A DNA stretch of 29,535 bases from a virus, in the IMG/VR virus record IMGVR_UViG_3300025000_000333, positions 1 to 29,535 of that record. One strand, 5' to 3'. Of the stretch, positions 739 to 12,331 are shown piece by piece (the stretch's first letter is position 1; each line of letters starts with the position of its first letter). Both the position numbers and the translations under genes were made by a program. Under the pieces are notes generated by a model, which was not told where the DNA came from, searched no databases, and saw nothing but the letters and a program-made list of their open reading frames with translations.

Positions 739-1662
739 ATGGGTATTATTACTACTAGTAATTTTGCAAAAGATCTGGTGCCTGGTGTAAAGACTTGGTT
801 CGGGCAGAAATATAAAGAGTATCCGATTGAATATTTGGACATTTTTGAAAAAGGTAACTCTACGAAGGCTTTTGAAGATGAAGCTGGTGTAACTGGGTTC
901 GGCCTCGCGGCAGTGAAGACTGAAGGTGCGGGGATTGCTTATGATGAGCAGGAACAGGGCTTTGTTAGTCGCTATACTCATGTGACGTACGGCCTTGGTT
1001 TTATTATTACTCGAGAGATGTACGAAGATGGTATAGCTGTCACGGTTGCTTTGCGTCGTGCGAATGCTCTGGCCTTCTCTATTCGACAGACCAAAGAGAT
1101 CATTGGGGCAAACATTCTCAATAGAGCTTTTACTGCTGCTTATACTATGGGAACTAATTCTGATGGCAAGGAGCTTTGTGCTACCGATCATCCGAACAAA
1201 TCCGGCGGTACATGGCGTAATGAGCTTGCGACTGCGGCAGATCTTAGTGAAGCTGCTCTTGAGCAGGCTTGCATTGACATTGCTGCATTCACTACTGATC
1301 GTGGTCTCAAGATTGCGATTATGCCCCAGAAGTTGATAATTCCGACTGCGCTTGAGTTTGACGCTATGCGGATTCTCGAATCTATTGGGCAGTCAGGCAG
1401 CGCAAATAATGACATCAATGCTATTCGTGCATCGAAGAAGTTTCCGCAGGGTATTGCTGTGAATCATTATTTGACGGATAGTGACGCATGGTTTATTAAA
1501 ACCAACTGTCCTGATGGCTTGAAGTATATGGAAAGGCGTCCGGATGCATTTGGGACTGAGAATGACTTTGACACTGAGAATGCAAAGTTCAAAGCGACTT
1601 TCCGTGGCTCGTTTGGTTGGTCTGATCCGCGAGGTATTTTTGGCTCACCTGGTGCTGCATGA
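739..1662 (+). CDS. Major capsid protein (HK97-fold, Mu gpT-like)
   Basis: This 307-residue protein is expected to form the icosahedral head shell. The early segment (DLVPGVKTWFGQKYKEY), the acidic block near residues 33-60, the YTHVTYGLGFIITREMYEDG stretch near residues 80-100 and the C-terminal FKATFRGSFGWSDPRGIFG pattern fit the Mu gpT-like group of HK97-fold major capsid proteins. Length is normal for that group, and there is no N-terminal prohead-peptide extension. AAAGGAG at 725-731 lies just upstream of the ATG and would give strong translation, as expected for the most abundant virion protein. A strong stem-loop without a T-run follows the stop. A minus-strand open frame crosses the 5' end but looks like a shadow. 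Confidence 0.88.
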   Translation: MGIITTSNFAKDLVPGVKTWFGQKYKEYPIEYLDIFEKGNSTKAFEDEAGVTGFGLAAVKTEGAGIAYDEQEQGFVSRYTHVTYGLGFIITREMYEDGIAVTVALRRANALAFSIRQTKEIIGANILNRAFTAAYTMGTNSDGKELCATDHPNKSGGTWRNELATAADLSEAALEQACIDIAAFTTDRGLKIAIMPQKLIIPTALEFDAMRILESIGQSGSANNDINAIRASKKFPQGIAVNHYLTDSDAWFIKTNCPDGLKYMERRPDAFGTENDFDTENAKFKATFRGSFGWSDPRGIFGSPGAA

Positions 1663-1759: not shown

Positions 1760-2164
1760 ATGGGAAAATATTCTTTTGGTAGAACCGGTCCGACTTTTGA
1801 AGGCACTTCATTAGTTCCTGCCTTCGCATCTGTAACGACTACTGCTACACCTGCATCAGGTTCCTGTGCAGTTCAATTTGTTTTCAAAGATGTTTCTGGT
1901 AATGCTGTTACGGCTCCAGTGTCTGGGCTGCTTTATTTGAGTGAAGTAGCTACTGGACTGACAAATGATTTGGCTGATACAACGCTTGCTGTATTGACTA
2001 ATGGTGCACTTAAGAATCTTGGAAGTGCTGGACCGAGTTTGTTTACTACGACTGCGGCCGGACTGTTGGGATTGACTATTACTGCTGTTGCTGATGATTA
2101 TTGGGTTGTGTTTGTTAAGCCTGATGGTTCCTTGATGATTTCTTCTGTTTGTACTGTAAATTAA
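1760..2164 (+). CDS. Small beta-rich virion structural protein
   Basis: This 134-residue protein has no signal peptide or membrane segment. Its middle reads as alternating hydrophobic strands (VQFVFKDVSGNAV, GLLYLSEVATGL) and it ends with DDYWVVFVKPDGSLMISS, an Ig-like or decoration-like beta-sandwich pattern common in small phage structural proteins. It lies between the capsid gene and a strong inverted repeat, so a decoration or head-fibre role is the best guess from context. It is the last product before the signal-peptide cassette and, unlike those proteins, has a soluble cytoplasmic start. The RBS is a purine-rich run at about 1743-1753. The specific function is unknown. Confidence 0.65.
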   Translation: MGKYSFGRTGPTFEGTSLVPAFASVTTTATPASGSCAVQFVFKDVSGNAVTAPVSGLLYLSEVATGLTNDLADTTLAVLTNGALKNLGSAGPSLFTTTAAGLLGLTITAVADDYWVVFVKPDGSLMISSVCTVN

Positions 2165-2294: not shown

Positions 2295-2741
2295 ATGAAA
2301 ATTATTAATATTATCGTTTTGCTGCTATTGTTAGTTTGTAGTACAAATTCCTTTGCTGCTTGGTCAAGAGTAGGTGGTGTTGAAGCTGGAGCAATAGGTA
2401 GTCATGGTTCTCCTACAGTACAGTTTATTTATGAATTTACTGCTACTGTTGAAAATACTATTGATACACTTACCCTACCGACTACTGGTGGATGTATTAC
2501 TTGGTTGTATCTTGATTTTCTTACGCCTACTCCAGACTCTATTACTACTACAGTAAAAAATAGTTTGGCACTTACTGTAACTGGACCGACAACTGATGCT
2601 TTAACGGCAGATGGAATCTTGTATCAACCAAACACTGGAAATCCTTTATGTCTTGCAAAAGGCTTTACTTATGCATTCACAGGAACAATTGCTGTAGGTG
2701 ATAAATTTCGCGTTATTACTGAAGCAATGGTTAATGATTAA
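2295..2741 (+). CDS. Secreted beta-rich protein of unknown function
   Basis: This protein of 148 residues begins with a clear Sec signal peptide: Lys-2, a Leu/Ile/Val core and a cleavage site after SFA near residue 21. The mature part is about 127 residues, Thr-rich and beta-like. It has two cysteines (in GGCITWLYL and NPLCLAKGF) that could form a disulfide in the periplasm. I do not recognise the family. The ATG at 2295 is preferred over an in-frame GTG at 2283 because GTGAGG at 2283-2288 serves as the ribosome binding site and the signal peptide starts exactly at the ATG. It opens a run of eight consecutive genes with export signals. Confidence 0.75.
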   Translation: MKIINIIVLLLLLVCSTNSFAAWSRVGGVEAGAIGSHGSPTVQFIYEFTATVENTIDTLTLPTTGGCITWLYLDFLTPTPDSITTTVKNSLALTVTGPTTDALTADGILYQPNTGNPLCLAKGFTYAFTGTIAVGDKFRVITEAMVND

Positions 2742-2742
2742 T

Positions 2743-2934
2743 ATGAAAAATACTTATAGCAAATCAATCACATTAGCACTTTTAGTAGTTTTGTTAATAG
2801 CTGGTAGTGCGTGGGCTATGAAACCATCATATTTATTAACACTGTTTTATGGTGATTCCGTGACAAAAACATATTTAGCATTTGGAGCTGAAAAAATAAC
2901 GCTTGGCGGCAACTATGTACTTGTGAGGGAATAA
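2743..2934 (+). CDS. Small secreted protein, unknown function
   Basis: This 63-residue protein has a positively charged start (KNTYSK), a long hydrophobic core and a likely cleavage site after GSAWA near residue 25. About 38 mature residues remain (FYGDSVTKTYLAFGAEK...). It starts two bases after the previous stop and has no good ribosome binding site of its own, so it is probably translated by coupling. Its TAA overlaps the next ATG by one base. An in-frame ATG lies 45 bases upstream inside the previous gene, but only the 2743 start gives the signal peptide. The function is unknown, and the signal could alternatively be an uncleaved membrane anchor. Confidence 0.65.
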   Translation: MKNTYSKSITLALLVVLLIAGSAWAMKPSYLLTLFYGDSVTKTYLAFGAEKITLGGNYVLVRE

Positions 2935-4694
2935 TGAAAAAGATACTTAGTTTTATCATTGTAACGTTGCTGTCCTTACCAGTATTTGTTTTTGCTGATG
3001 TTGATGGTGATTCCGATGCAAATGGTTATTTAGATGTGGCTAAAGGTGGTACAAACTCAGCTACTGCGGCAAATGCAAGAACAGCACTTGGAGTACCCGT
3101 TACAGCAGCAACTCTTGTTGGATCATGTACTGTAGGACCTTGCTTAGATGGTACTTCAGATGGTGGAGACTTAATTAAACTATATGGTCCAAGTGGATTC
3201 TGGATCTCGTTGCAGGCTGGTAATGCTGTGGCAAACAGAAACTGGAGACTTCCAATAGATGCTCCACCTGCTGCCGGCACCACCAGGTTGATTAATGTTG
3301 ATGAGAATACTCAGATGGGCCTCATTGACCCTGCTACCTTCGCTGCTGCTCTCGGAGCAGACGACAACTACGTCACTGATGCAGAGAAAATCGTCATCGG
3401 CAATACCAGCGGCACGAATACCGGGGACCAAACATCAGCTTCAGCTCTTACTGTAACAGCAACTGGATTTGATGGCAACTTAACGATTACCGATGATACT
3501 GTTCAGGAGGTTGCTCAAAAACTTGATGATCTTTCGATAACAGGCGGATACACTAACCTTACGTCCTTTTTAACTCAGACAGCTTGGAGATTGTTCTACT
3601 CTGATGGCTCTGGTGATGTTAAAGAGCTTGCCCTGGGTGCAGATGGCGAATACTTAAAAAGCAATGGTACTGCTGTTGCCCCGTCATGGGCTACTCCTTC
3701 TGGTGCGGCACATGACGCTGTGTCCATCAGCACCGATCTCGGCAATAACTTGCTCGGATTGTCTACCCAGCAGTTGACCCTCGATAGTCAGACGGCGAAT
3801 TACATTTTCGCTGCTCCGAATGGTTCAGCCGGTGTTCCATCATTCCGCGCGTTACTCGCGGCAGATATACCGACTCTCAACCAGAACACCACAGGCACGG
3901 CAGCAGGTCTTTCCGGCACTCCGAACATCACGGTCGGCACTATCTCAGCAGGCGCAGGCGGGGTCACGGTTGATGCTGACGGCGATATGACTGTAAAATC
4001 CATCTCTACCACTGCCTCCGATGGCAGCCGTAGGTCGATCATCCCCAACAACACCAGCATCGCCCCGCTTGCAGACGGCAGTGAGGAAATTTACAACGAG
4101 GACGGATCTCTGAAAGCGGTTGAAAACAACACCGAATACGATATCATGCTCTCCCGCGATATCGGCTCGGCTATCCAGTCGTATGATGCTGATCTGACAA
4201 CATGGGCGGAAGTTACATCTTCGGCAAACGGACGGTCACTGGTGTCTGCTGCTGACTATGCAGCAATGCGGGCGCTACTTGACCTTGAGGCCGGGACTGA
4301 CTTTAACGCCTACGATGCAGATTTAACTACGTGGGCAGGAGTTACCCCTGGCACTGGAGTGGCAACGTCACTGGCTGTAAATCTGGACGCTGAAGGGGGT
4401 GTCGCGCAGTTGATCGAGAAAGGCACCTCCACCCTCGGCACTTCCGAGATTGCCTCTGGTGCCTGTGCTACTGCCGTAACGACAGCGGCTACAAATGCAG
4501 CCACGACAGACGTTATCAACTGGGGGTTCAACGGTGATCCAACCTCTACCACAGGCTACGCCCCGACTGCGAATGGGATGCTGACGATCATCGCCTACCC
4601 GAGTACGGGAAATGTGAATTTCAAAGTCTGCAACCTTACGGCTGCCGCTATCACTCCCGGTGCGATCACCCTCAACTGGAGGATTCAGAGATGA
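2934..4694 (+). CDS. Tail-fibre-like protein with N-terminal Sec signal peptide
   Basis: This 586-residue protein starts with a signal peptide (KK, hydrophobic core, cleavage after VFVFA near residue 21). The mature part then reads as a phage fibre: YLDVAKGGTNSATAANAR with ALG following near residues 32-52 is the AKGGTxAxTAAxAR-ALG element of many tail fibres, and YDADLTTWA occurs twice (about residues 421 and 462). The C-terminal ~110 residues (KGTSTLGTSEIASGACA to the end) form a compact Cys-containing beta-rich domain. The role would be trimeric surface or receptor binding. Base composition shifts inside the gene: the 5' end is AT-rich like its neighbours, while most of the sequence after about 3700 is G+C-rich, which suggests recombination. 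An export signal on a fibre is unusual. Its stop overlaps the next start (ATGA). Confidence 0.75.
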   Translation: MKKILSFIIVTLLSLPVFVFADVDGDSDANGYLDVAKGGTNSATAANARTALGVPVTAATLVGSCTVGPCLDGTSDGGDLIKLYGPSGFWISLQAGNAVANRNWRLPIDAPPAAGTTRLINVDENTQMGLIDPATFAAALGADDNYVTDAEKIVIGNTSGTNTGDQTSASALTVTATGFDGNLTITDDTVQEVAQKLDDLSITGGYTNLTSFLTQTAWRLFYSDGSGDVKELALGADGEYLKSNGTAVAPSWATPSGAAHDAVSISTDLGNNLLGLSTQQLTLDSQTANYIFAAPNGSAGVPSFRALLAADIPTLNQNTTGTAAGLSGTPNITVGTISAGAGGVTVDADGDMTVKSISTTASDGSRRSIIPNNTSIAPLADGSEEIYNEDGSLKAVENNTEYDIMLSRDIGSAIQSYDADLTTWAEVTSSANGRSLVSAADYAAMRALLDLEAGTDFNAYDADLTTWAGVTPGTGVATSLAVNLDAEGGVAQLIEKGTSTLGTSEIASGACATAVTTAATNAATTDVINWGFNGDPTSTTGYAPTANGMLTIIAYPSTGNVNFKVCNLTAAAITPGAITLNWRIQR

Positions 4695-5257
4695 TCCTCA
4701 GACTACTAATTACCCTGCTGCTTCTCCCCTCGCTGGCTTGCGCTGGGCAGGGGATGGGGCCGGGGCCGGGGTTTAAGACGTATTCGGCTGGCGGTGGTTC
4801 ACCTACGGTAGCTGTCGATAATATCACAGCCAGAACCGGAGCATCAAACGGTCAGATTTCCAACGCGATGTTCCGTGGCAACAGCTTTAAACATACTGAT
4901 GGATCAGGGTCATACGAGTTTTATAGTTTCAGCGTAATGATTAACTCTATTGGTGGTGCTAATACAATCGAGTGCAGGCTGAGTGCGTCAACTGATTTTT
5001 CCTCTCCGCTGGCCACCGGGACTCTGGCAGTATCAACAACTGGAGAAAAAGAGGTAATCGCATCCAGTAATCCGACATTAACCGATAACACCACGTATTA
5101 CGCAGCGTGTGGACTATCTACAGCAACGCCTACTGTTTACCTCAAATATGATGCAACTAGCAGTTACGCAGACGGCATTCGGTTATATGGCACCGCTTGG
5201 TCGAGCGTAACGGCTACCGCAGACGGTGACATGCTGTTTAAGGTGACAAAACAATGA
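4691..5257 (+). CDS. Secreted beta-sandwich protein
   Basis: This 188-residue protein has a textbook signal peptide ending LPSLACA near residue 18, followed by a Gly/Pro-rich linker (GQGMGPGPGF). The mature domain (about residues 35-188) is Ser/Thr-rich with regular strands and two cysteines (ECRLS, YAACGLS). It resembles generic carbohydrate-binding or choice-of-anchor beta-sandwiches, but no family signature is certain. The start overlaps the fibre stop as ATGA, and its own stop overlaps the next gene in the same way. The signal peptide closely resembles that of the following gene (LLLPSLACA against LLLPSLASA), suggesting duplication or a shared origin. A role with the neighbouring fibre and beta-helix proteins is inferred from context. 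Confidence 0.65.
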   Translation: MILRLLITLLLLPSLACAGQGMGPGPGFKTYSAGGGSPTVAVDNITARTGASNGQISNAMFRGNSFKHTDGSGSYEFYSFSVMINSIGGANTIECRLSASTDFSSPLATGTLAVSTTGEKEVIASSNPTLTDNTTYYAACGLSTATPTVYLKYDATSSYADGIRLYGTAWSSVTATADGDMLFKVTKQ

Positions 5258-6963
5258 TGATTATTCGGCTGATCCTTTGCTTTTTACTGCTGCCGTCTCT
5301 GGCAAGCGCGGAGCTGTATTATAATCCATCGCTTAAAGGTACTCTCGCGCCGCCAACATCAAATGGCAATGTCTATCACGTAGCCAAAACAGGCAGTGAC
5401 AGTAACAATGGACTGTCCGAGGGGACAGCCTGGCTGACGATGGCGAAGGCGATGGATCGCTACACCAATCGCGGCGGGGCAAATGGTGCTATTGTTCTCG
5501 TTCATGCTGGGACATATTATGAGGGCTTTACCGTCCCTGAAACATGGACGCGGGGTACGACACCGGAGGACGGGATAATTGTCTCAGCGGCTGGTGATGG
5601 AGAGGTGATATTCGATAGATCGTGGACACCTCATTTCGGGGCGTGGTCGGTACATTCTGGCAGCATCTACAAGTCTACAGCCGACAGCATCCCGGCTCTT
5701 GGTATTCGGTCGGTGATTATTGATGATGACTTCTATTCATACCATCCAAAAACCTCTCTTGTTGCCGTAGGCGCAGAGGGCGACTGGTATTTCGACCAAG
5801 CAACAGGCGTAATCTATGTCTACACCCTCAGTTCAAAAGGCGATCCAACCGACGATGATGTGATCATTTCCAACGATGACGGAGGATCGTCCTCGTCTTA
5901 CGGGGTGACGTTTCACGACAACGGAAACTATGTCACGCTCTACGGGGTGACTGTGAGAGGGTCTGCTTCTCATGGAATTTTTGATTCCACCGGAAACACG
6001 AACAACAAGATCGAACAGTGCGAGATAAAATATCACGCAAAGGGTGGCATAGCGTTTGATTCAGCATCCTACTCCAGTGTTATAAAGAGTCTGGTTCACG
6101 GCAACATAATGAGGAATTGGCCTCGGGGAAAATGGAACTCCGTATGCGCTGATATCAATGCTGGGGGGTGGCCCGCTGGGCTTGGTGGAAGCGGTAGCGA
6201 CCACATGACCATATCGGGGAGCATCATTACGGATAACAGCGGAGAGGGTACGCTTTTTTACAAAGGTGCAGGAGAGAATACCTGGGAGGATAACATTGTC
6301 GGAAACAACTGGTCAGCAAATATCTACGCGGATAATTTTGCAAACCCGACCATTAGGCGTAATTTCCTGTTTTCAACTAAGGTTTTCGGAATCGCAGATA
6401 TCGGGGAGCATTGCACAGTAGAGGCCGACCAGCAACGGGTACTGAGGCGGTGCCGCCCCGAAGGTGTAATGACTGCTGACGAAGATTATGGCACAGGCGC
6501 GAACTATACAGGTGGCAAGATTTACAGCAACGTGATTCTCGGATGTCGCCGGGGGGTTACTCATTACGGCGAGGCTACAGGATCAGGCGTTAAGAATACG
6601 AAGGTATACAATAATACTATAGTTCTCCCGAACTCAGATCCTTCCCTTATAGCAGATGTCTTTTATGGAATCTCCTACAGCTATATGGCCGGAAACAACA
6701 CTGGCAGCGAGGTAAAAAATAATGTGATTATCGGCAACGCTGGCGGGTATGGTTCTGTCGTAAAATGGCTGGAAGTGGGGGAGACAGATCCCGGGATAGT
6801 ATGGAATTACAATGTTTATTATCATCCGAACAACGCCACGCCGTTTCGATATCGAGCGACAAACTATAATTTTGCAGACTGGAAAACCCAAACTGGAGGA
6901 GACGCAAACAGTGAAAACACTAGCCCTGGCATTATTCGTACTGATTGGTCTATGTACCAATAG
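5254..6963 (+). CDS. Secreted right-handed parallel beta-helix protein (tailspike/lyase-like)
   Basis: This 569-residue protein has a signal peptide ending LPSLASA near residue 19. Next comes VYHVAKTGSDSNNGLSEGTA at residues 41-60, the characteristic opening of DUF1565/right-handed beta-helix proteins, then a conserved HAGTYYEGF turn. The body has many short Asn/Gly-bounded strands (NNKIEQCEI, NKIYSN-type rungs) typical of pectate-lyase-like coils. Family members are polysaccharide lyases, hydrolases or tailspike depolymerases; no catalytic set can be named here. The protein stops soon after TGGDANSENTSPG. The usual family ending (AVVDAGADLG...GWDAGAFEF) lies in the +1 frame just downstream, inside the next gene, so this protein lacks its normal C-terminal cap. 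Confidence 0.75.
   Translation: MMIIRLILCFLLLPSLASAELYYNPSLKGTLAPPTSNGNVYHVAKTGSDSNNGLSEGTAWLTMAKAMDRYTNRGGANGAIVLVHAGTYYEGFTVPETWTRGTTPEDGIIVSAAGDGEVIFDRSWTPHFGAWSVHSGSIYKSTADSIPALGIRSVIIDDDFYSYHPKTSLVAVGAEGDWYFDQATGVIYVYTLSSKGDPTDDDVIISNDDGGSSSSYGVTFHDNGNYVTLYGVTVRGSASHGIFDSTGNTNNKIEQCEIKYHAKGGIAFDSASYSSVIKSLVHGNIMRNWPRGKWNSVCADINAGGWPAGLGGSGSDHMTISGSIITDNSGEGTLFYKGAGENTWEDNIVGNNWSANIYADNFANPTIRRNFLFSTKVFGIADIGEHCTVEADQQRVLRRCRPEGVMTADEDYGTGANYTGGKIYSNVILGCRRGVTHYGEATGSGVKNTKVYNNTIVLPNSDPSLIADVFYGISYSYMAGNNTGSEVKNNVIIGNAGGYGSVVKWLEVGETDPGIVWNYNVYYHPNNATPFRYRATNYNFADWKTQTGGDANSENTSPGIIRTDWSMYQ
6895..6901 (+). promoter_or_regulatory. Strong ribosome binding site inside the beta-helix gene
   Basis: GGAGGAG lies nine bases before a GTG at 6911 and inside the reading frame of the beta-helix gene. 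It is the main evidence that the +1-frame reading is a separately translated gene and not only the downstream half of a frameshift. Confidence 0.5.
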
Positions 6964-7198
6964 TTCCGCCGTGGATTATACCGTGTTGGATGCTACTGGG
7001 GTGGACATTGCCGATTTCAGATCCAGCGGTCAATCGTCAGCAGTTGTCGATGCCGGGGCAGATTTAGGCACGGAATATTATCTTGATTTTGATGGGTATT
7101 ATCGAGAGTCTGGATGGGATGCCGGGGCATTTGAGTTTGCGGCTGACGATGTTTACGGGGTTTTGCTCGGCACGGTGCTGCTCGGAGATCCGCGATGA
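6911..7198 (+). CDS. Secreted C-terminal cap of the beta-helix protein, encoded separately
   Basis: Starting at GTG 6911 behind GGAGGAG, this frame gives 95 residues. It begins with a good signal peptide (VKTLALALFVLIG, cleavage after TNSSA near residue 20). The mature part contains SSAVVDAGADLG and then GWDAGAFEF, the typical C-terminal ending of secreted right-handed beta-helix proteins (usually SPAIDAGxDLG...GWDIGAYEF). It overlaps the beta-helix gene by 53 bases in the +1 frame. Either the ancestral gene was split and the cap gained its own start and export signal, or a one-base shift (real, programmed or an assembly error) broke a single gene. The good binding site plus signal peptide favour a real separate gene, but the apparent signal could be accidental. 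Confidence 0.5.
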   Translation: MKTLALALFVLIGLCTNSSAVDYTVLDATGVDIADFRSSGQSSAVVDAGADLGTEYYLDFDGYYRESGWDAGAFEFAADDVYGVLLGTVLLGDPR

Positions 7199-7251
7199 TC
7201 GACGGCGACGGGTGTTTCTGAAATTAAAATTTAATACTTGGAGGAAAAGAA

Positions 7252-7638
7252 ATGAAGAGATTTTTGGGAGTAGCCTTGACCGTTGGCCTGTTGACGAGTT
7301 GCTCGGTGAACTATAGTCCGACCGAGGTCACATTTAACCAGAACACTGGCGGCGGGAATGGAACCATGAGGACCGATGCCAAGGGGCTCACCACGGCCAA
7401 CACGCCCACTCAAGACGCCAGCGGCTCGGCGGCAACTGAGGGGGCTATGGCTGCACTTGGGGGCATTAAGGACGCAGTTGCCAATTTCATACCGGCAGTG
7501 ACTACGACTGAAACGACGACTACAACTACTCCGCTTCAGCCGACACCTGCTGCTCCGACATTTCCTGATGTTACTCCGCCGGACGCTCCTGTTGAGGAAA
7601 TTGCTGCGCCTGAAGGCCAGATCGAGGAGGTAGACTGA
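7252..7638 (+). CDS. Pro/Thr-rich lipoprotein
   Basis: This 128-residue protein has a type II signal peptide with lipobox LTSC (Cys-17) and Ser at +2, which in Gram-negative bacteria favours outer-membrane sorting. The mature chain is low in complexity: a Gly/Asn-rich segment, a short Ala-rich helix near residues 63-80 (EGAMAALGGIKDAVANF), then a Thr and Pro stretch (about residues 83-115) and an acidic end. This suits an extended periplasmic linker. It could be an outer-membrane spanin-type subunit, but no adjacent embedded inner-membrane partner is seen, so I do not call it one. GGAGG at 7240-7244 supports the ATG. Its TGA overlaps the next ATG by one base. Confidence 0.7.
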   Translation: MKRFLGVALTVGLLTSCSVNYSPTEVTFNQNTGGGNGTMRTDAKGLTTANTPTQDASGSAATEGAMAALGGIKDAVANFIPAVTTTETTTTTTPLQPTPAAPTFPDVTPPDAPVEEIAAPEGQIEEVD

Positions 7639-8417
7639 TGTTCAGGTTAGTTCTGGTACTTGTCTTATTCTGGACAGTGTCAGCAGGAGCTGTGACAATA
7701 CCTCAGTCTTTGAGTGAGTGTACTGCACTTTGTACTCAATATTTTCCAGGAAACGTTCCAGTTACACCGCCTGTTACTCCACCACCAGGCAACCAGGCAT
7801 TTCCTCATCCGATCACGTTTGAACGATCAACTGATCAAGGGAATGGTTCTGCAGGAATTTTGTTCAGAACTTTACAAGCAGGTTCGATTACTTATGTTTC
7901 AGTTAATGGTGAAGTTGCCAGATTAGGAGTTCCTTATAAAGGTGCTCCAGTTTTTCTGTTGACTAAGTCCGGTGACCAGTATGCGAGACCACTAAGTTTT
8001 GTAATTAAGATGGATGATGGTGTAACTTATACTGCTAAGACCGGAAATGCCACAGGGCCAATAAGTCCATCAGGAAGCTACTCTAATAAAGCAGAATATG
8101 ATTCATATGGAGTTCGGAATGGTGGAAGACAAGCCTGGCGTATTAATAAGCGAGGTGATTCTCTCGGCTCAGGGCCGGTAAAATTTACATTCTCAGACGG
8201 ACTGACTTTTATTGTAAAAGATTCTAATAAGAATTGTCGAGATCGAGAAGATACTTGCAATAGAGATTCTCGTGCAGAGAAAGATGGCTTTCTATATAAG
8301 CCAGGCAATGGATTGCCAAATGGTTCTGGTGATGCAGATCGAGGTACAGCACATGGTGGAATTTATCTTCATGCTCCGTATGGAAATAGCAGTAAAAAAG
8401 TGTTAATGCAATGGTAA
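7638..8417 (+). CDS. Secreted protein with Pro-rich linker, unknown function
   Basis: This 259-residue protein has a signal peptide (MFRLVLVLVLFW, cleavage after SAGA near residue 18). Two cysteines follow (ECTALCTQYF), then a PVTPPVTPPPG linker and a mature domain from about residue 54. The C-terminal third is polar and charged, with a second Cys pair (NKNCRDREDTC) and an ending DRGTAHGGIYLHAPYGN. All four mature cysteines could pair in the periplasm. I do not recognise the family. Composition returns to AT-rich here, unlike the preceding genes, so it was probably not acquired together with the G+C-rich block. The start is coupled to the lipoprotein stop (TGATG). Its last codons contain the start of a tiny zinc-knuckle gene. 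Confidence 0.65.
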   Translation: MFRLVLVLVLFWTVSAGAVTIPQSLSECTALCTQYFPGNVPVTPPVTPPPGNQAFPHPITFERSTDQGNGSAGILFRTLQAGSITYVSVNGEVARLGVPYKGAPVFLLTKSGDQYARPLSFVIKMDDGVTYTAKTGNATGPISPSGSYSNKAEYDSYGVRNGGRQAWRINKRGDSLGSGPVKFTFSDGLTFIVKDSNKNCRDREDTCNRDSRAEKDGFLYKPGNGLPNGSGDADRGTAHGGIYLHAPYGNSSKKVLMQW

Positions 8418-8494
8418 TTTGTTCTCAATGTGGATATAAATATACTGGTCCAAGATGTCCAATATGTAATTATCCGAACGAAGACTGTGATTGA
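8411..8494 (+). CDS. 27-residue zinc-knuckle (double CxxC) peptide
   Basis: An ATG overlapping the last seven bases of the previous gene opens a 27-residue frame. It contains CSQCGYKYTGPRCPIC: two CxxC knuckles eight residues apart, a minimal zinc-ribbon arrangement, and a further Cys near the end (NEDCD). The spacing and the Gly/Tyr/Pro after the knuckles are typical of real zinc ribbons, and chance formation in an unrelated frame is unlikely. It has no signal peptide and would act in the cytoplasm. Function is unknown; phage and host proteins of this kind bind nucleic acid or partner proteins. Translation would rely on coupling to the upstream gene. Confidence 0.6.
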   Translation: MVICSQCGYKYTGPRCPICNYPNEDCD

Positions 8495-8522
8495 GTTTTG
8501 CCTTTACTTCCTGGAGGGAGAT

Positions 8523-8711
8523 ATGAGGGTGATTTCGGAAGACAGTTTGCAGTTATTCAAGAAAAATGACGAAGGTTTGCATTTTGTCAAGGATCGATAT
8601 TGCAAAGAGCCTGGGCCGTGTTTCTCTTTTGATGATCACGGTAGAGCCGGTGTGAGTTGTGATAGGTTTCGCTATCAACCAACAGGTGTAAAATTATGCA
8701 TCAAATTATAA
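8523..8711 (+). CDS. Small cysteine-containing protein, unknown
   Basis: This 62-residue protein starts at the ATG behind GGAGGG (8513-8518); an upstream in-frame ATG at 8430 is rejected because it runs through the zinc-knuckle gene and lacks a binding site. It has no signal peptide. Four cysteines occur (RYCKEPGPC, VSCDRF, KLCIKL), spaced so that a metal site or disulfides are possible. The C-terminus runs 16 bases into the start of the thermonuclease gene, so translation of the two is probably linked. I do not recognise the family. Confidence 0.6.
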   Translation: MRVISEDSLQLFKKNDEGLHFVKDRYCKEPGPCFSFDDHGRAGVSCDRFRYQPTGVKLCIKL

Positions 8712-9163
8712 TCTTATTCTTCTTACTTGTAGCTTCAATTGCTCAAGCCAAGCCAGCTACAGTAGTTAGTGTTACTGATGGTGATACAATCAAAGTAATT
8801 GATGAGACTGGATTAACGACTGTTCGGCTTTATGGAATTGATTCGCCTGAAAAGAAACAGGCTTTTGGGCTTGCAGCTAAAGACTTTGTTGAAGTTATGG
8901 TCAAGGGCAAGGTTGTCGATATTGCACCTGTTGATGTTAAGCATTATGATAGATATGGACGAACAGTAGCTGTTGTTATGCTTGGAACACAATGTGTGCA
9001 AGAACAGCTTTTGCTCGCTGGGTATGCTTGGGTATATCCTCAGTATTGTAAGAAATCGTTCTGTAGAGCTTGGGAAAAGCTACAAGGTATCTCCGCCGGT
9101 AATCGAGTAGGCTTATGGTCTGGGCCTGCTCCGGTTCAGCCTTGGGTCTGGAGGAAGAAATGA
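8696..9163 (+). CDS. Secreted thermonuclease (SNase family)
   Basis: This 155-residue protein belongs to the Ca2+-dependent staphylococcal-nuclease family, which cuts DNA and RNA. A signal peptide ends AQA (residue 18). The OB-fold follows with VTDGDTIKV (Asp-28, Asp-30), VRLYGIDSPE (Arg-44, Asp-49, Glu-52) and YDRYGR (Arg-89). These correspond in order to the calcium ligands and the Arg/Glu/Arg catalytic set of the family. The length is near that of the mature domain plus signal. It would act in the periplasm or outside the cell, not on cytoplasmic DNA. Position at the head of the lysis chain suggests it degrades released nucleic acid or incoming DNA; that is inference. ATGA overlap couples it to the next gene. 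Confidence 0.88.
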   Translation: MHQIIILFFLLVASIAQAKPATVVSVTDGDTIKVIDETGLTTVRLYGIDSPEKKQAFGLAAKDFVEVMVKGKVVDIAPVDVKHYDRYGRTVAVVMLGTQCVQEQLLLAGYAWVYPQYCKKSFCRAWEKLQGISAGNRVGLWSGPAPVQPWVWRKK

Positions 9164-9708
9164 ACTTTGTCAAGATATCTCATTATGGTGCTGATCTTAC
9201 TGTTCCAGAGTTTCTAGTTCCTCTCTGGCCACATGATTTACCTCCTGAGAAGTGGCCATCATTTCTCGGTGCTGGTCAAGGTTGGGGAGATAAAATAGTT
9301 CCTGATCATTTTGGTAAGGCTAGGCTTAATCCTGCAGGCCTTTGTCATGATGTAGAATGGGCTGTGTCAGTAAAGAATTTGTCTGCGTTTTTAGGAGCTA
9401 ATGGTCGGTTCTTCTTGAACTGTGTATCACTTATTCTTGCTTCAGATATGGATGTATGGCCTAAGATAAAGACCATGATTTTTGTTAGCGGATTGTATCT
9501 TATGGCAGTAAGCACTATAGGAATCTTATTTTTTTCTTGGTTTACTAAGGAACGAAAAGAAGATATTGATCCTCTGCAGAATCCTATTGTAAAGGATAGA
9601 TTAAGAAGGTTGGCAATAGCTAGGAATAATCATTGGGCAAAGATCCTCGATACTCGTTTACCTGATAATGAAGACGGGCTTTACAAAGATGACGAAAAGG
9701 AATATTAA
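9160..9708 (+). CDS. Membrane protein with phospholipase A2-like His-Asp box
   Basis: The start at 9160 overlaps the nuclease stop and gives 182 residues. Residues 45-90 read KIVPDHFGKARLNPAGLCHDVEWAV followed by ANGRFFLNCV. This resembles the HDxxY catalytic helix (His-63, Asp-64) and the second helix of short prokaryotic and phage phospholipase A2-like proteins, though Tyr is replaced by Trp. A hydrophobic segment at about residues 105-127 is a probable membrane span, followed by a charged cytoplasmic-type tail (KERKEDIDPLQ). It may damage or remodel membrane lipids or be part of the holin system. The phospholipase reading is tentative; the membrane span is clear. The next gene starts directly after the stop. 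Confidence 0.5.
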   Translation: MNFVKISHYGADLTVPEFLVPLWPHDLPPEKWPSFLGAGQGWGDKIVPDHFGKARLNPAGLCHDVEWAVSVKNLSAFLGANGRFFLNCVSLILASDMDVWPKIKTMIFVSGLYLMAVSTIGILFFSWFTKERKEDIDPLQNPIVKDRLRRLAIARNNHWAKILDTRLPDNEDGLYKDDEKEY

Positions 9709-10206
9709 ATGCCAGAAAATGGAGGATTTACCTTTTTTGCAGGAGTGGCTGGAGCGTTTGGAGTTATTCTTGGATGGGCTCTTTCTCTTGTAGGTCTTGG
9801 TGGAAAGATTCAAAAAACTAAAGGTGAGATAGAACGCGCACATACGCGGCTTGATGCTCATGATATTAAATTTACTGCGAATGACTTAATCCTTGCAGAA
9901 ACAACTCAAACACGAATCAGGATTATTGATTATGATCGTAGGCTATCAGAGATTGAAAATGCGATTAAGTCTGTTCTTAAAATGTTTGAAATGTCTGATG
10001 GGGAACCGAGATTTATTACTAGGCCAACTTGTTCTGATGCGAGAGAAACATGTCATGAGCGTCTTGATGAGAAAATGGCAGCAGGTGCAGAGCGCTTTGG
10101 GAGGCTTGAAAGTGAAGTTAAAGAAGTGAAAGAAGCTCAAGAGAAAAACTTAGAAACTATTCTTAAAGCAATCCAGCAAATAAATAATGGTGATTCACAT
10201 ACATGA
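9709..10206 (+). CDS. N-anchored coiled-coil membrane protein (lysis-associated)
   Basis: This 165-residue protein has one hydrophobic Gly-rich segment at about residues 8-32 (FFAGVAGAFGVILGWALSLV), then a long charged helix with heptad-like spacing from about residue 33 to the end (KIQKTKGEIERAHTRL, EVKEVKEAQEKNLE). The middle contains SDGEPRFITRPTCSD and a second Cys (CHERLDE). A single membrane anchor followed by a coiled coil fits an inner-membrane lysis accessory such as a holin-like or inner-spanin-like protein, or a structural membrane protein. It lies between the His-Asp box membrane protein and the peptidase; it abuts the former and overlaps the latter by ATGA. A specific role cannot be proved from sequence. 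Confidence 0.55.
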   Translation: MPENGGFTFFAGVAGAFGVILGWALSLVGLGGKIQKTKGEIERAHTRLDAHDIKFTANDLILAETTQTRIRIIDYDRRLSEIENAIKSVLKMFEMSDGEPRFITRPTCSDARETCHERLDEKMAAGAERFGRLESEVKEVKEAQEKNLETILKAIQQINNGDSHT

Positions 10207-10928
10207 TACTTAAAGATGGTAGTGAAACTCAAGATTCTCGTTGTGGGTTGATCTTTCAAGCTGATCCTACAGCCCCGAATCTTCTTGCTGTGCCACCGAT
10301 TGACGATGGTATTGATTTGCGATATCGAGAATTGATCAGTAAATATCGAGTAAAGAAATTCAAAGAACCTTTGCTTAATCAAAGTGATTGGAGTGCTTGC
10401 GGAGGATTTGGCTTTACGGCTTTTATGGAACATGAGCCTGGGATAAGAACTCTTGGCGATGAATGGGCGCTTGAGTTTTACTTTAGGTGTCAAGATAATG
10501 ATCAGTGGCCAGGTTCTGAACGCCCTGGATCGAAGCCAATTAGTTATGGCACATCACTTGCAGCAGTAATGCAAACTGCGAAGCAAGAAGGTTTAATAGA
10601 ATCGTATTGTCGAGCACGAACAGTTGATGAGGTGATTCGAGGTATTGATTATTATGGCAGTGCTATACTTGGGCTTGAATGGACTGAAGGTATGATGTAT
10701 CCTCGTGAAGTAGATGGGCTGAGTACTCCTGGTGGAGAGGTTGTTGGTGGCCACTGTACTGCTGGAACATTTATTAATCGCCATCAAAATATTATTGGTG
10801 GTCCAAACTCTTGGCCTGATTGGAATTTACTTCGTAACGGTTACTGGGTGATGGATCTTGATGACTTTGCAGAAGTATTTATGAAGCGCGGTGGCGAGTG
10901 TGCATTTGCTAGGAAGGCAGTAATATGA
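10203..10928 (+). CDS. Papain-like cysteine peptidase
   Basis: This 241-residue protein carries an ordered Cys-His-Asn set. NQSDWSACGGFGF holds an oxyanion-hole Gln (residue 60) and the nucleophile Cys-66. EVVGGHCTAG holds His-184. GPNSWPDWN holds Asn-202, with the Asn-Ser-Trp trio typical of papain (C1) family enzymes. No signal peptide or pro-domain is seen, so it is made in the cytoplasm in near-mature form. It sits directly between the coiled-coil membrane protein and the lysozyme, with start/stop overlaps on both sides, suggesting co-ordinated expression at lysis. It might cut envelope proteins or peptide cross-links, or process a virion protein; the target is unknown. Confidence 0.75.
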   Translation: MILKDGSETQDSRCGLIFQADPTAPNLLAVPPIDDGIDLRYRELISKYRVKKFKEPLLNQSDWSACGGFGFTAFMEHEPGIRTLGDEWALEFYFRCQDNDQWPGSERPGSKPISYGTSLAAVMQTAKQEGLIESYCRARTVDEVIRGIDYYGSAILGLEWTEGMMYPREVDGLSTPGGEVVGGHCTAGTFINRHQNIIGGPNSWPDWNLLRNGYWVMDLDDFAEVFMKRGGECAFARKAVI

Positions 10929-11401
10929 ATATGCAAGTTGATAATAAATTTTATGAATTTTTGAAGTATGTTGAGGGAAGCTATAGACAAGTTTATCTTG
11001 ACTCTGGTGGTGAGCCTACTATTGGTATTGGACATTTATTGACATTATCTGAGCGTAGATCAGGAAAGATTGTAATTGGTAAAGCTGTTGTAGAATATAG
11101 ACACGGATTAACTGATGCACAAGTATTAGATCTCTGTCAACAAGATATTCGGGCTGTGGTTAAGGTAGTGAATCGTGGGGTTAAGGTGCCACTTACGCAG
11201 AATCAGTTCAACACACTTGTGAGCTTCACGTTCAATGTCGGTGACGAAAGCTTTCTAGATTCTACCCTGCTTCGAGTTCTCAATCAGAACCAGTATGGGG
11301 TGGTGCCGAGCCAACTGCGGCGCTGGAAATATGACAACGGCAAGGTAGTTCAAGGCCTAGTTAATCGTAGAGAAAAAGAAATTCAATTATGGCTTTCATA
11401 A
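10925..11401 (+). CDS. T4-type lysozyme endolysin (GH24 muramidase)
   Basis: This 158-residue protein hydrolyses the N-acetylmuramic acid to N-acetylglucosamine bond of peptidoglycan. The catalytic triad is visible as YVEGSY (Glu-17), LDSGGEPTIGIGH (Asp-26, Thr-32). The spacing of nine and six residues equals that of T4 lysozyme (Glu-11, Asp-20, Thr-26). The later VPLTQNQFNTLVSFTFNVG block is also typical. Length is normal for a single-domain GH24 enzyme. There is no signal or SAR-type N-terminal segment, so release across the inner membrane should need a holin, possibly one of the two upstream membrane proteins. Base composition is higher in G+C from about 11160 to 11340 than in flanking parts, hinting at mosaic exchange. 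Confidence 0.92.
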   Translation: MNMQVDNKFYEFLKYVEGSYRQVYLDSGGEPTIGIGHLLTLSERRSGKIVIGKAVVEYRHGLTDAQVLDLCQQDIRAVVKVVNRGVKVPLTQNQFNTLVSFTFNVGDESFLDSTLLRVLNQNQYGVVPSQLRRWKYDNGKVVQGLVNRREKEIQLWLS

Positions 11402-11413
11402 AGAAGGTAAGTA

Positions 11414-11653
11414 ATGTCATATAAATCTGGTGATTATTTAGTAATCTGTGATCAATGTGGCTTTCAGCGTTATGCCTCCGAATGCCGAATGACTTGGGAT
11501 AAGTTGTTTGTTTGTGCTGATACATGTTGGGAAGAAAAGCATCCACATTATACTGATCCAAAACCATTGGGTGAGAAGCAAAGTGTTCCTGTGCATAGGC
11601 CGGAACCAGAAGAGAATTTTATAACTACTCCAATTACATCAGATGATCTTTAA
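11414..11653 (+). CDS. Small zinc-binding phage protein
   Basis: This 79-residue protein contains CDQCGFQRYASECRMTWDKL and then FVCADTCWEEKHPHY, that is CxxC (residues 12-15) followed by CxxxC-W-E-x-KHP. This pattern is common in small conserved phage proteins (usually ...GLRVCxDCWExxHPQD), which are presumed zinc-binding. The C-terminal 30 residues are Pro/Glu-rich and probably unstructured. AGAAGG at 11403-11408 supports the ATG. It lies between the lysozyme and the adaptor gene. The family has no established function that I know of, so a nucleic-acid or assembly role would be speculation. Confidence 0.65.
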   Translation: MSYKSGDYLVICDQCGFQRYASECRMTWDKLFVCADTCWEEKHPHYTDPKPLGEKQSVPVHRPEPEENFITTPITSDDL

Positions 11654-11662
11654 GGAAAAATT

Positions 11663-12331
11663 ATGGCAACTTTTAGCGAATTAAAAGAGAAGGTTGAGCT
11701 TCTTATTAATGATGATTCTTTTGAAGATTATTTGGGAGATTTTATTAATCAAGGAGTTTCTGAAATTGCTGGTGGAATGCCATCTTTGTTAGATGGAATT
11801 GAGAATCCAATACCGAATATACTTACTCCACCATTGCCTGAATTGTTTAGTATAGATACTGTAACAACTTCTACAAGTGCTGCTTTTGTAGATATGCCAG
11901 TTGATTTTCAACGAGACTTACAATTGGTAGTTTCATCTACTGGAAGTGAGATTGATATTGCACATTCGTTTATTGAGTTTGCAGAAACATACCCTTTGCT
12001 GAATAAAACTGGTAGAATTTCTGAAGCTATTGAACATGGAAGAAAATTATATTATCAAGGTATTCCTGCAAGTGCTGAGACTTTAACATTACATTACTAT
12101 AGAATGCCTGTTGATATGGAAGATGATGATGATGTTCCAGATGGAATTCCAGCACATTTACATATATCCTTGCTGGTGAATTTTGCTGCTTGGAAAGCTT
12201 ACGAACATATTGAAGATGGTCTTGAGGGTGAAATACCAAATACACTTAAATATAAAAATAATTTTCTTGCTGCATTAAGAACATTTGAATTAACACTTCC
12301 ATTTTATTCTCGTGGACTTATGCTTAGATAA
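11663..12331 (+). CDS. Head-to-tail adaptor protein (SU10 adaptor-like)
   Basis: This 222-residue protein begins MATFSELKEKVELLIND followed by a helical DYLGDFINQGVSEI stretch, the usual start of phage adaptor proteins that bind under the portal ring. The middle includes FVDMPVDFQRDL (typically LPxDF), then KLYYQGIPASAETLTLHYYR (usually the ...LTLxYYR strand). The C-terminus is helical (LHISLLVNFAAWKAYEHIED; FLAALRTFELTL), which matches the closing helices of the family. The role would be the ring connecting portal and tail. It starts ten bases after the previous stop with AAGGAAAAA as the binding site. The portal itself is not in the window and is expected upstream. Confidence 0.68.
   Translation: MATFSELKEKVELLINDDSFEDYLGDFINQGVSEIAGGMPSLLDGIENPIPNILTPPLPELFSIDTVTTSTSAAFVDMPVDFQRDLQLVVSSTGSEIDIAHSFIEFAETYPLLNKTGRISEAIEHGRKLYYQGIPASAETLTLHYYRMPVDMEDDDDVPDGIPAHLHISLLVNFAAWKAYEHIEDGLEGEIPNTLKYKNNFLAALRTFELTLPFYSRGLMLR

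What the first reader, a model, noticed from the sequence alone, without database searches (positions are those of the whole stretch)
2295..9163. A run of phage genes whose products nearly all carry export signals
Nine of eleven gene products from 2295 to 9163 start with an apparent Sec or lipoprotein signal peptide (ends SFA, SAWA, VFA, ACA, ASA, SSA, LTSC, AGA, AQA). They include a fibre-like and a beta-helix protein. Virion proteins are normally made and assembled in the cytoplasm, and the structural genes on both sides lack signals. This could be a secreted adhesin/depolymerase or envelope-modifying system carried by the phage: matrix digestion after lysis, superinfection exclusion, receptor decoys or lysogenic conversion. 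Signal peptides are seen directly; the system idea is inference.
Basis: partly seen in the sequence, partly recalled or inferred. Interest (0 to 1): 0.82.

Follow-up and report, generated by a model that had tools for sequence, protein, structure and literature searches.

The report
Phage cassette of exported fibre-like proteins
A lytic-looking tailed phage and its close relatives carry a swappable block of genes, next to the lysis genes, whose fibre-like, sugar-binding and polymer-cutting products carry signals that send them out of the infected cell's cytoplasm, unlike ordinary phage tail parts; this suggests the phage alters the outside of its host or the lysis debris as well as building particles.

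Summary
Eight products between 2295 and 9163 have good Sec or lipoprotein signals. The ninth (GTG 6911, "SSA") is doubtful: what follows it is the C-terminal end of the beta-helix protein 5254-6963, in a shifted frame. The enrichment is far from chance: 2/151 non-redundant genes upstream of the capsid gene carry signals, against 25/100 in this interval among relatives (Fisher p=2e-9). It is confined to the close clade (4/252 in relatives at 35-57% capsid identity). Relatives reveal a three-gene exported cassette: a fibre-like protein, a lectin-like protein with a constant N-terminus, and a variable body (beta-helix, GH123, M28 peptidase, TIG/lectin) often ending in an invariant tag, RGTVPLG[DN]M[RQ]. 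Signals persist while N-termini diverge, and can be type I, lipobox or, in one related phage, twin-arginine-like. One fibre has a signal-less homologue starting at the predicted cleavage site. The cassette also occurs in contigs lacking this capsid family. No integrase was found. Best reading: a mobile envelope- or matrix-acting exported cassette used around lysis. Export is well supported; its purpose is inferred. Assembly of these fibres onto virions after lysis is the main rival. No proteomics exists.

The parts
739..1662 (+). major capsid protein (anchor for comparing relatives)
   Evidence: Phage_capsid_4 6.8e-11, Mu-like gpT 2.9e-7; phrog_371
1760..2164 (+). capsid-decoration-like protein, left border of the variable interval
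   Evidence: conserved in 27 loci next to the capsid gene; its weak signal call is discounted
2295..2741 (+). exported small protein g1, 148 aa, signal MKIINIIVLLLLLVCSTNSFA
   Evidence: homologue in L048 keeps the signal
2743..2934 (+). exported 63-aa protein g2, signal ...AGSAWA
   Evidence: 94% identical homologue in L048 and L028
2934..4694 (+). slot 1: exported tail-fibre-like protein, 586 aa, signal ...VFVFA then GGTNSATAANARTALG
   Evidence: homologues in other contigs keep signals with diverged N-termini
4691..5257 (+). slot 2: exported, possibly lectin-like protein, 188 aa, signal ...LACA then constant GQGMGPGPGFKTY
   Evidence: fold not determined
5254..6963 (+). slot 3: exported right-handed beta-helix protein, 569 aa, N-terminal part of a gene whose frame appears broken near its 3' end
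   Evidence: Beta_helix 2.6e-13; signal ASA
6911..7198 (+). C-terminal end of the slot-3 beta-helix protein in a shifted frame, ending in GTVLLGDPR; its apparent signal (SSA) is doubtful
   Evidence: against chance origin:
7252..7638 (+). lipoprotein g7, 128 aa, lipobox LTSC, Pro-rich tail (outer-spanin-like by character only)
   Evidence: conserved before g8 in 22 loci
7638..8417 (+). exported conserved protein g8, 259 aa; some homologues have a zinc-ribbon-like N-terminus instead of a signal
   Evidence: Ig-like core only at middling Z
8523..8711 (+). short conserved protein g9 without signal
8696..9163 (+). exported staphylococcal-nuclease-family protein, signal AQA
   Evidence: SNase 2.2e-18; thermonuclease structures E 2.5e-10; signal kept in homologues
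9160..9708 (+). protein with a C-terminal membrane segment, between the exported genes and the lysozyme
9709..10206 (+). N-terminal membrane segment plus likely coiled coil (inner-spanin- or holin-like by character only)
   Evidence: own reading of the sequence
10203..10928 (+). peptidase-like protein
   Evidence: phrog_16701 4.1e-17
10925..11401 (+). lysozyme-type endolysin
   Evidence: phrog_7 7e-41
11414..11653 (+). conserved 79-aa CxxC protein g15, right border of the interval
   Evidence: present in 38 loci
11663..12331 (+). SU10-type head-tail adaptor, no signal
   Evidence: PF24175 4.3e-16

Best explanation
The interval holds a mobile, modular cassette of proteins that the infected host exports through Sec (and lipoprotein or perhaps Tat routes in relatives). 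A fibre-like protein (slot 1), a lectin-like protein with a constant mature N-terminus (slot 2) and a beta-helix or other polymer-binding or -cutting protein with, in most copies, a constant C-terminal tag (slot 3) are made beside the lysis genes, travel to the periplasm or outer membrane, and are set free at lysis. There they most likely bind and trim surface or matrix polymers, so that receptors on debris are masked or removed and progeny can disperse; the exported nuclease would clear released DNA or cut incoming DNA. Shown: the signals, their conservation, the modular exchange, the cargo families. Inferred: actual export, timing, the partners of the tags, and the benefit to the phage.
For: Signals enriched 25/100 vs 2/151, vs 4/252 in distant relatives and 2/844 upstream genes. 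Slot-1 homologues at about 45-73% identity keep a signal despite diverged N-termini. L009 fibre SP|AQQTILGGAGVLWG has a signal-less homologue in L101 starting MAQQTILGGSGVLWG. Slot-1 fibre of L010/L036 has a lipobox, LTAC, which would anchor it in a membrane. L073 has a twin-arginine-like signal on another protein of the interval. Cargo: beta-helix, M28 peptidase, GH123, LamG. Invariant RGTVPLGDMR on bodies 19-32% identical, with synonymous codon changes. Cassette in contigs without this capsid family. No integrase in 17 records.
Against: No proteomics or expression data. The signals rest on a rule-based caller. The mature slot-1 proteins resemble virion fibres, and one kept the same N-terminus as a signal-less form, so a virion role is not excluded. 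In L073 an SU10-adaptor-family protein also has a signal. How a fibre would cross the outer membrane before lysis is unknown. The window's slot-3 gene seems frame-broken. The lipobox and twin-arginine cases rest on very few sequences.
Confidence: 0.5

Rival explanations
1. The exported proteins are true virion fibres and tip adhesins that are folded (perhaps disulfide-bonded) in the periplasm and docked onto particles when the cell lyses; the constant N- and C-terminal tags are docking peptides.
For: Slot-1 proteins have fibre-like modules and a signal-less homologue with the same N-terminus; constant tags on variable bodies look like docking ends; the cassette can follow other fibre-like genes; mature parts contain cysteines; an SU10-adaptor-family protein has a signal in L073.
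Against: A lipobox form of slot 1 would be membrane-anchored; M28 and GH123 cargo are unusual for particles; signal-less fibre-like genes also exist beside the cassette; assembly of tail fibres outside the cytoplasm is not known to me for tailed phages.
Confidence: 0.22
2. Superinfection exclusion or receptor masking during infection, in the manner of the T5 Llp lipoprotein, is the main role, with the nuclease as a second barrier.
For: Lipoprotein g7 and the lipobox slot-1 form; the exported SNase-family protein.
Against: No exclusion family was hit; large multi-protein cassettes with hydrolases are more than masking needs; not tested.
Confidence: 0.12
3. Lysogenic conversion: the cassette is expressed from a prophage to change the host surface.
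For: Exported phage proteins are typical conversion factors (general knowledge).
Against: No Phage_integrase match in 17 related records up to 68 kb; the genes sit beside the lysozyme, suggesting late expression (inference). Contigs may be incomplete and other integrase types were not searched.
Confidence: 0.06
4. The signals are not used: hydrophobic N-termini are accidental or serve particle assembly uncleaved.
For: No experimental proof of cleavage; the 6911 signal lies in an out-of-frame region.
Against: Conserved across diverged homologues, with type I sites and lipoboxes, and near-absent from control genes.
Confidence: 0.05

Closest known systems
Phage tail fibres and branched receptor-binding systems with variable tips on constant attachment ends
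   Same: fibre-like stalk modules, variable binding or beta-helix domains, short constant ends
   Different: every slot begins with an export signal; one slot-1 form carries a lipobox
Phage tailspike depolymerases (right-handed beta-helix)
   Same: slot 3 of the window and of several relatives is a right-handed beta-helix
   Different: known tailspikes are virion parts without Sec signals (general knowledge); here the same slot also holds GH123, M28 or TIG/lectin bodies
T5 Llp, receptor-blocking phage lipoprotein (general knowledge)
   Same: phage-made exported protein acting at the envelope during lytic growth, by analogy
   Different: no sequence comparison was made; multi-gene, modular, with hydrolases
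Secreted thermonucleases (staphylococcal nuclease family)
   Same: g10 matches SNase with a signal peptide
   Different: encoded in a phage late region beside lysis genes

Membership tests
Sec signal-peptide proteins | positive n-region, hydrophobic core, AXA-type site or lipobox | tested here: met
   eight of the window's products by a rule-based caller; the nuclease signal has no lysine or arginine before its core; SignalP not available
Sec signal-peptide proteins | cleavage and extracytoplasmic location | not testable with these tools
   needs proteomics or reporter fusion
Tail-fibre-like proteins (slot 1) | shared fibre modules with signal-less phage fibres | tested here: met
   L009 vs L101, 74% over 27 aa at the N-terminus; module shared with many contigs
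Tail-fibre-like proteins (slot 1) | presence in the virion | not testable with these tools
   no isolate or proteome
Right-handed beta-helix tailspike/depolymerase | beta-helix fold | tested here: met
   PF13229 2.6e-13
Right-handed beta-helix tailspike/depolymerase | catalysis on a surface polysaccharide | not testable with these tools
   no solved relative by sequence
Staphylococcal nuclease family (g10) | family match over the nuclease domain | tested here: met
   PF00565 2.2e-18; alignment to thermonuclease
Lysogenic conversion module | carried by a temperate phage (tyrosine integrase) | tested here: not met
   0 of 17 records match PF00589; contigs may be incomplete
Two-component spanins (g7, g12) | Pro-rich outer lipoprotein plus inner-membrane coiled-coil partner | tested here: inconclusive
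   signal, lipobox and membrane segment present; no family match; genes not adjacent

The most novel reading that the evidence does not exclude
Tailed phages of this group export a complete set of fibre, adhesin and enzyme proteins through the host's secretion routes and assemble or display them outside the cytoplasm, using constant short end-tags as connectors, so that part of the phage's host-recognition apparatus is built in the periplasm or on the outer membrane rather than in the cytoplasm.
Probability: 0.25. Interest if true: 0.87.

Novelty: new variant of a known kind. Interest (0 to 1): 0.66.

Why it matters
Textbook tailed phages make receptor-binding proteins in the cytoplasm and keep them on the particle. 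A mobile cassette that exports fibre-like proteins and polymer-cutting enzymes during lytic growth would be a different way for a phage to act on host surfaces, debris and biofilm, and gives a concrete set of genes and a short conserved tag to test. The signal-less and signal-bearing homologous fibres are a ready comparison.

Tried and rejected
Chance or start-codon artefact: rejected by control rates, except for the 6911 signal. Signals as a general trait of this capsid family: rejected; nearly absent in distant relatives, including a contig of the isolate Zavarzinia marina. Isolate homologues: tblastn of the slot-1 protein hit only short segments in two uncultured phages; slot-2 proteins, g8 and an L012 fibre found none. 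Literature: eight searches found no description of exported tail-fibre cassettes (open-licence papers only); one rumen-phage paper reports 0-2 signal peptides per genome (PMC5723332). Fold of g8: pLDDT 71.7, pTM 0.43, no Foldseek match with E below 0.001, best VIA-align Z 6.5 to common Ig-like domains, so no identity claimed. Fold of a tagged slot-3 protein: pLDDT 47.5, not interpretable. A slot-2 pattern match in L162 looks like chance. An apparent loss of the slot-1 signal in L036 was my gene caller's start error; the upstream start gives a lipobox. Relatives of the M28, slot-2 and signal-bearing adaptor proteins beyond their own contigs: none found. Phospholipase- or spanin-like labels for g11, g12 and g7 were considered and not claimed.

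Full report
What is there. The window is an uncultured virus record of 29.5 kb with a gpT/Phage_capsid_4-type capsid protein (739-1662), an SU10-type adaptor (11663-12331), a lysozyme (10925-11401) and large downstream virion-type genes. Its nearest annotated relatives by capsid are about 50-56% identical, among them Alcaligenes phage QDWS535, phage DSL-LC04 and uncultured Manatee Spring phages. The claimed run, 2295-9163, lies between a decoration-like protein and the genes leading to the lysozyme.

Checking the observation. With a rule-based caller, eight products carry signals: 2295, 2743, 2934, 4691, 5254, 7638 and 8696 (signal peptidase I type) and 7252 (lipobox). The ninth, read from a GTG at 6911, is different. 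It begins inside the beta-helix gene in another frame; the sequence after it matches the C-terminal end of another exported beta-helix protein (L097, E=3e-8) and ends GTVLLGDPR, a diverged copy of a tag that ends slot-3 proteins in relatives. The simplest reading is one beta-helix gene whose frame is broken near its 3' end. The same arrangement is in two other contigs, from two sample series. An accidental signal with a Shine-Dalgarno is rare (3 in 1,646 kb-frames), so a used second start stays possible.

Is it more than chance? Eighty related loci were fetched by capsid. After clustering at 60% identity, signals occur in 2 of 151 genes up to the capsid gene, 25 of 100 between capsid and the conserved CxxC protein g15, and 6 of 139 after it (Fisher p=2e-9 and 3e-6). 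With a second start-finding rule, control genes give 2/844; loci with capsids 95-100% identical give 93/340; loci at 35-57% identity give 4/252 (these counts are not clustered). The signals are a trait of the close clade, not of the capsid family.

The cassette. Reading the relatives gives a repeated order: slot 1, a fibre-like protein; slot 2, a protein whose mature start is constant (GSHSV..., GSQE..., or GQGMGPGPGFKTY) with a variable, often lectin-like body; slot 3, a variable body ending in RGTVPLG[DN]M[RQ] in most copies; then a lipoprotein, g8, g9 and the nuclease. Slot-3 bodies include beta-helix (window, L015, L043, L118), M28 peptidase (L009), GH123 (L014, without the tag) and TIG/lectin-like (L048, L011, L117). 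In one alignment the bodies are 19-32% identical while the last ten residues are invariant, with synonymous codon differences between contigs, so selection appears to act on the peptide. A degenerate DNA search for the tag hit 13 stretches in the viral collection, nearly all from one numbered series of metagenomes and several being contigs already held. Contigs L117/L123, L118 and L093 carry the cassette but no capsid of this family; L117 has its own terminase and portal next to it, L093 head-morphogenesis genes. L093 and L123 are short, so absence of the capsid there is weak evidence; L117 and L118 are about 50 kb. The cassette therefore seems to move between phage backbones.

Why the signals look used. 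Slot-1 homologues keep a signal while the N-terminus changes. In L009 the mature fibre begins AQQTILGGAGVLWG; in L101 a homologue without any upstream signal begins MAQQTILGGSGVLWG. In L010/L036 the slot-1 signal is a lipobox. In L073 a LamG-like protein in the same region has a twin-arginine-like start. Different routes with the same outcome argue for selection on location. A lipid-anchored fibre could hardly be a particle part.

Mechanism and rivals. The genes sit beside the lysozyme, and no integrase was found in 17 records, several of 60-68 kb, so late lytic expression is likely (inference). I favour export to the periplasm or outer membrane and release at lysis, acting on surface or matrix polymers and on released DNA. 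The chief rival is that fibres are folded outside the cytoplasm and docked on particles after lysis; the signal-less twin, the docking-like tags and the signal-bearing SU10-adaptor-family protein of L073 keep it open. Lysogenic conversion and unused signals are less likely.

Limits. No SignalP, proteomics or isolate; the caller is crude and misses some starts, so counts in relatives are approximate. Two structure predictions gave no usable identity. The literature search covers open-licence papers only. The host is unknown; short signals and lipoproteins suggest a diderm bacterium (inference).

Noticed in passing
L073:11265-11945: A protein of the SU10 head-tail adaptor family (PF24175, 3.9e-17) carries a Sec-type signal, next to a normal signal-less adaptor at 10573-11265.
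   Followed up: partly
L073:12759-13595: LamG-like protein with a twin-arginine-like signal (TRREFLK) in a phage late region.
   Followed up: no
window:7638-8417 and homologues in L048, L009, L017, L034, L036, L040: g8 homologues swap the signal plus CxxxC N-terminus for a zinc-ribbon-like MPTCPKCKHTW start while the rest stays conserved.
   Followed up: partly
L014:6132-8399: Exported GH123-family glycoside-hydrolase-like protein encoded by the phage.
   Followed up: no
L009:5595-6623: Exported M28 metallopeptidase encoded in the same slot; no relative found in the viral collection.
   Followed up: partly
L025:5474-5851: Small lipoprotein with an HELEH metalloprotease-like motif before the conserved lipoprotein; no Pfam match.
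   Followed up: partly
L022:9903-10244 and many close relatives: Small exported FN3-like protein (APGWQRNLTVEWGYEPP...) occupies the place of slots 1-3 in relatives with signal-less fibre genes.
   Followed up: no
window:28600-29457 (-): ThyX-type thymidylate synthase on the opposite strand at the right end (Thy1, 1.6e-36).
   Followed up: no
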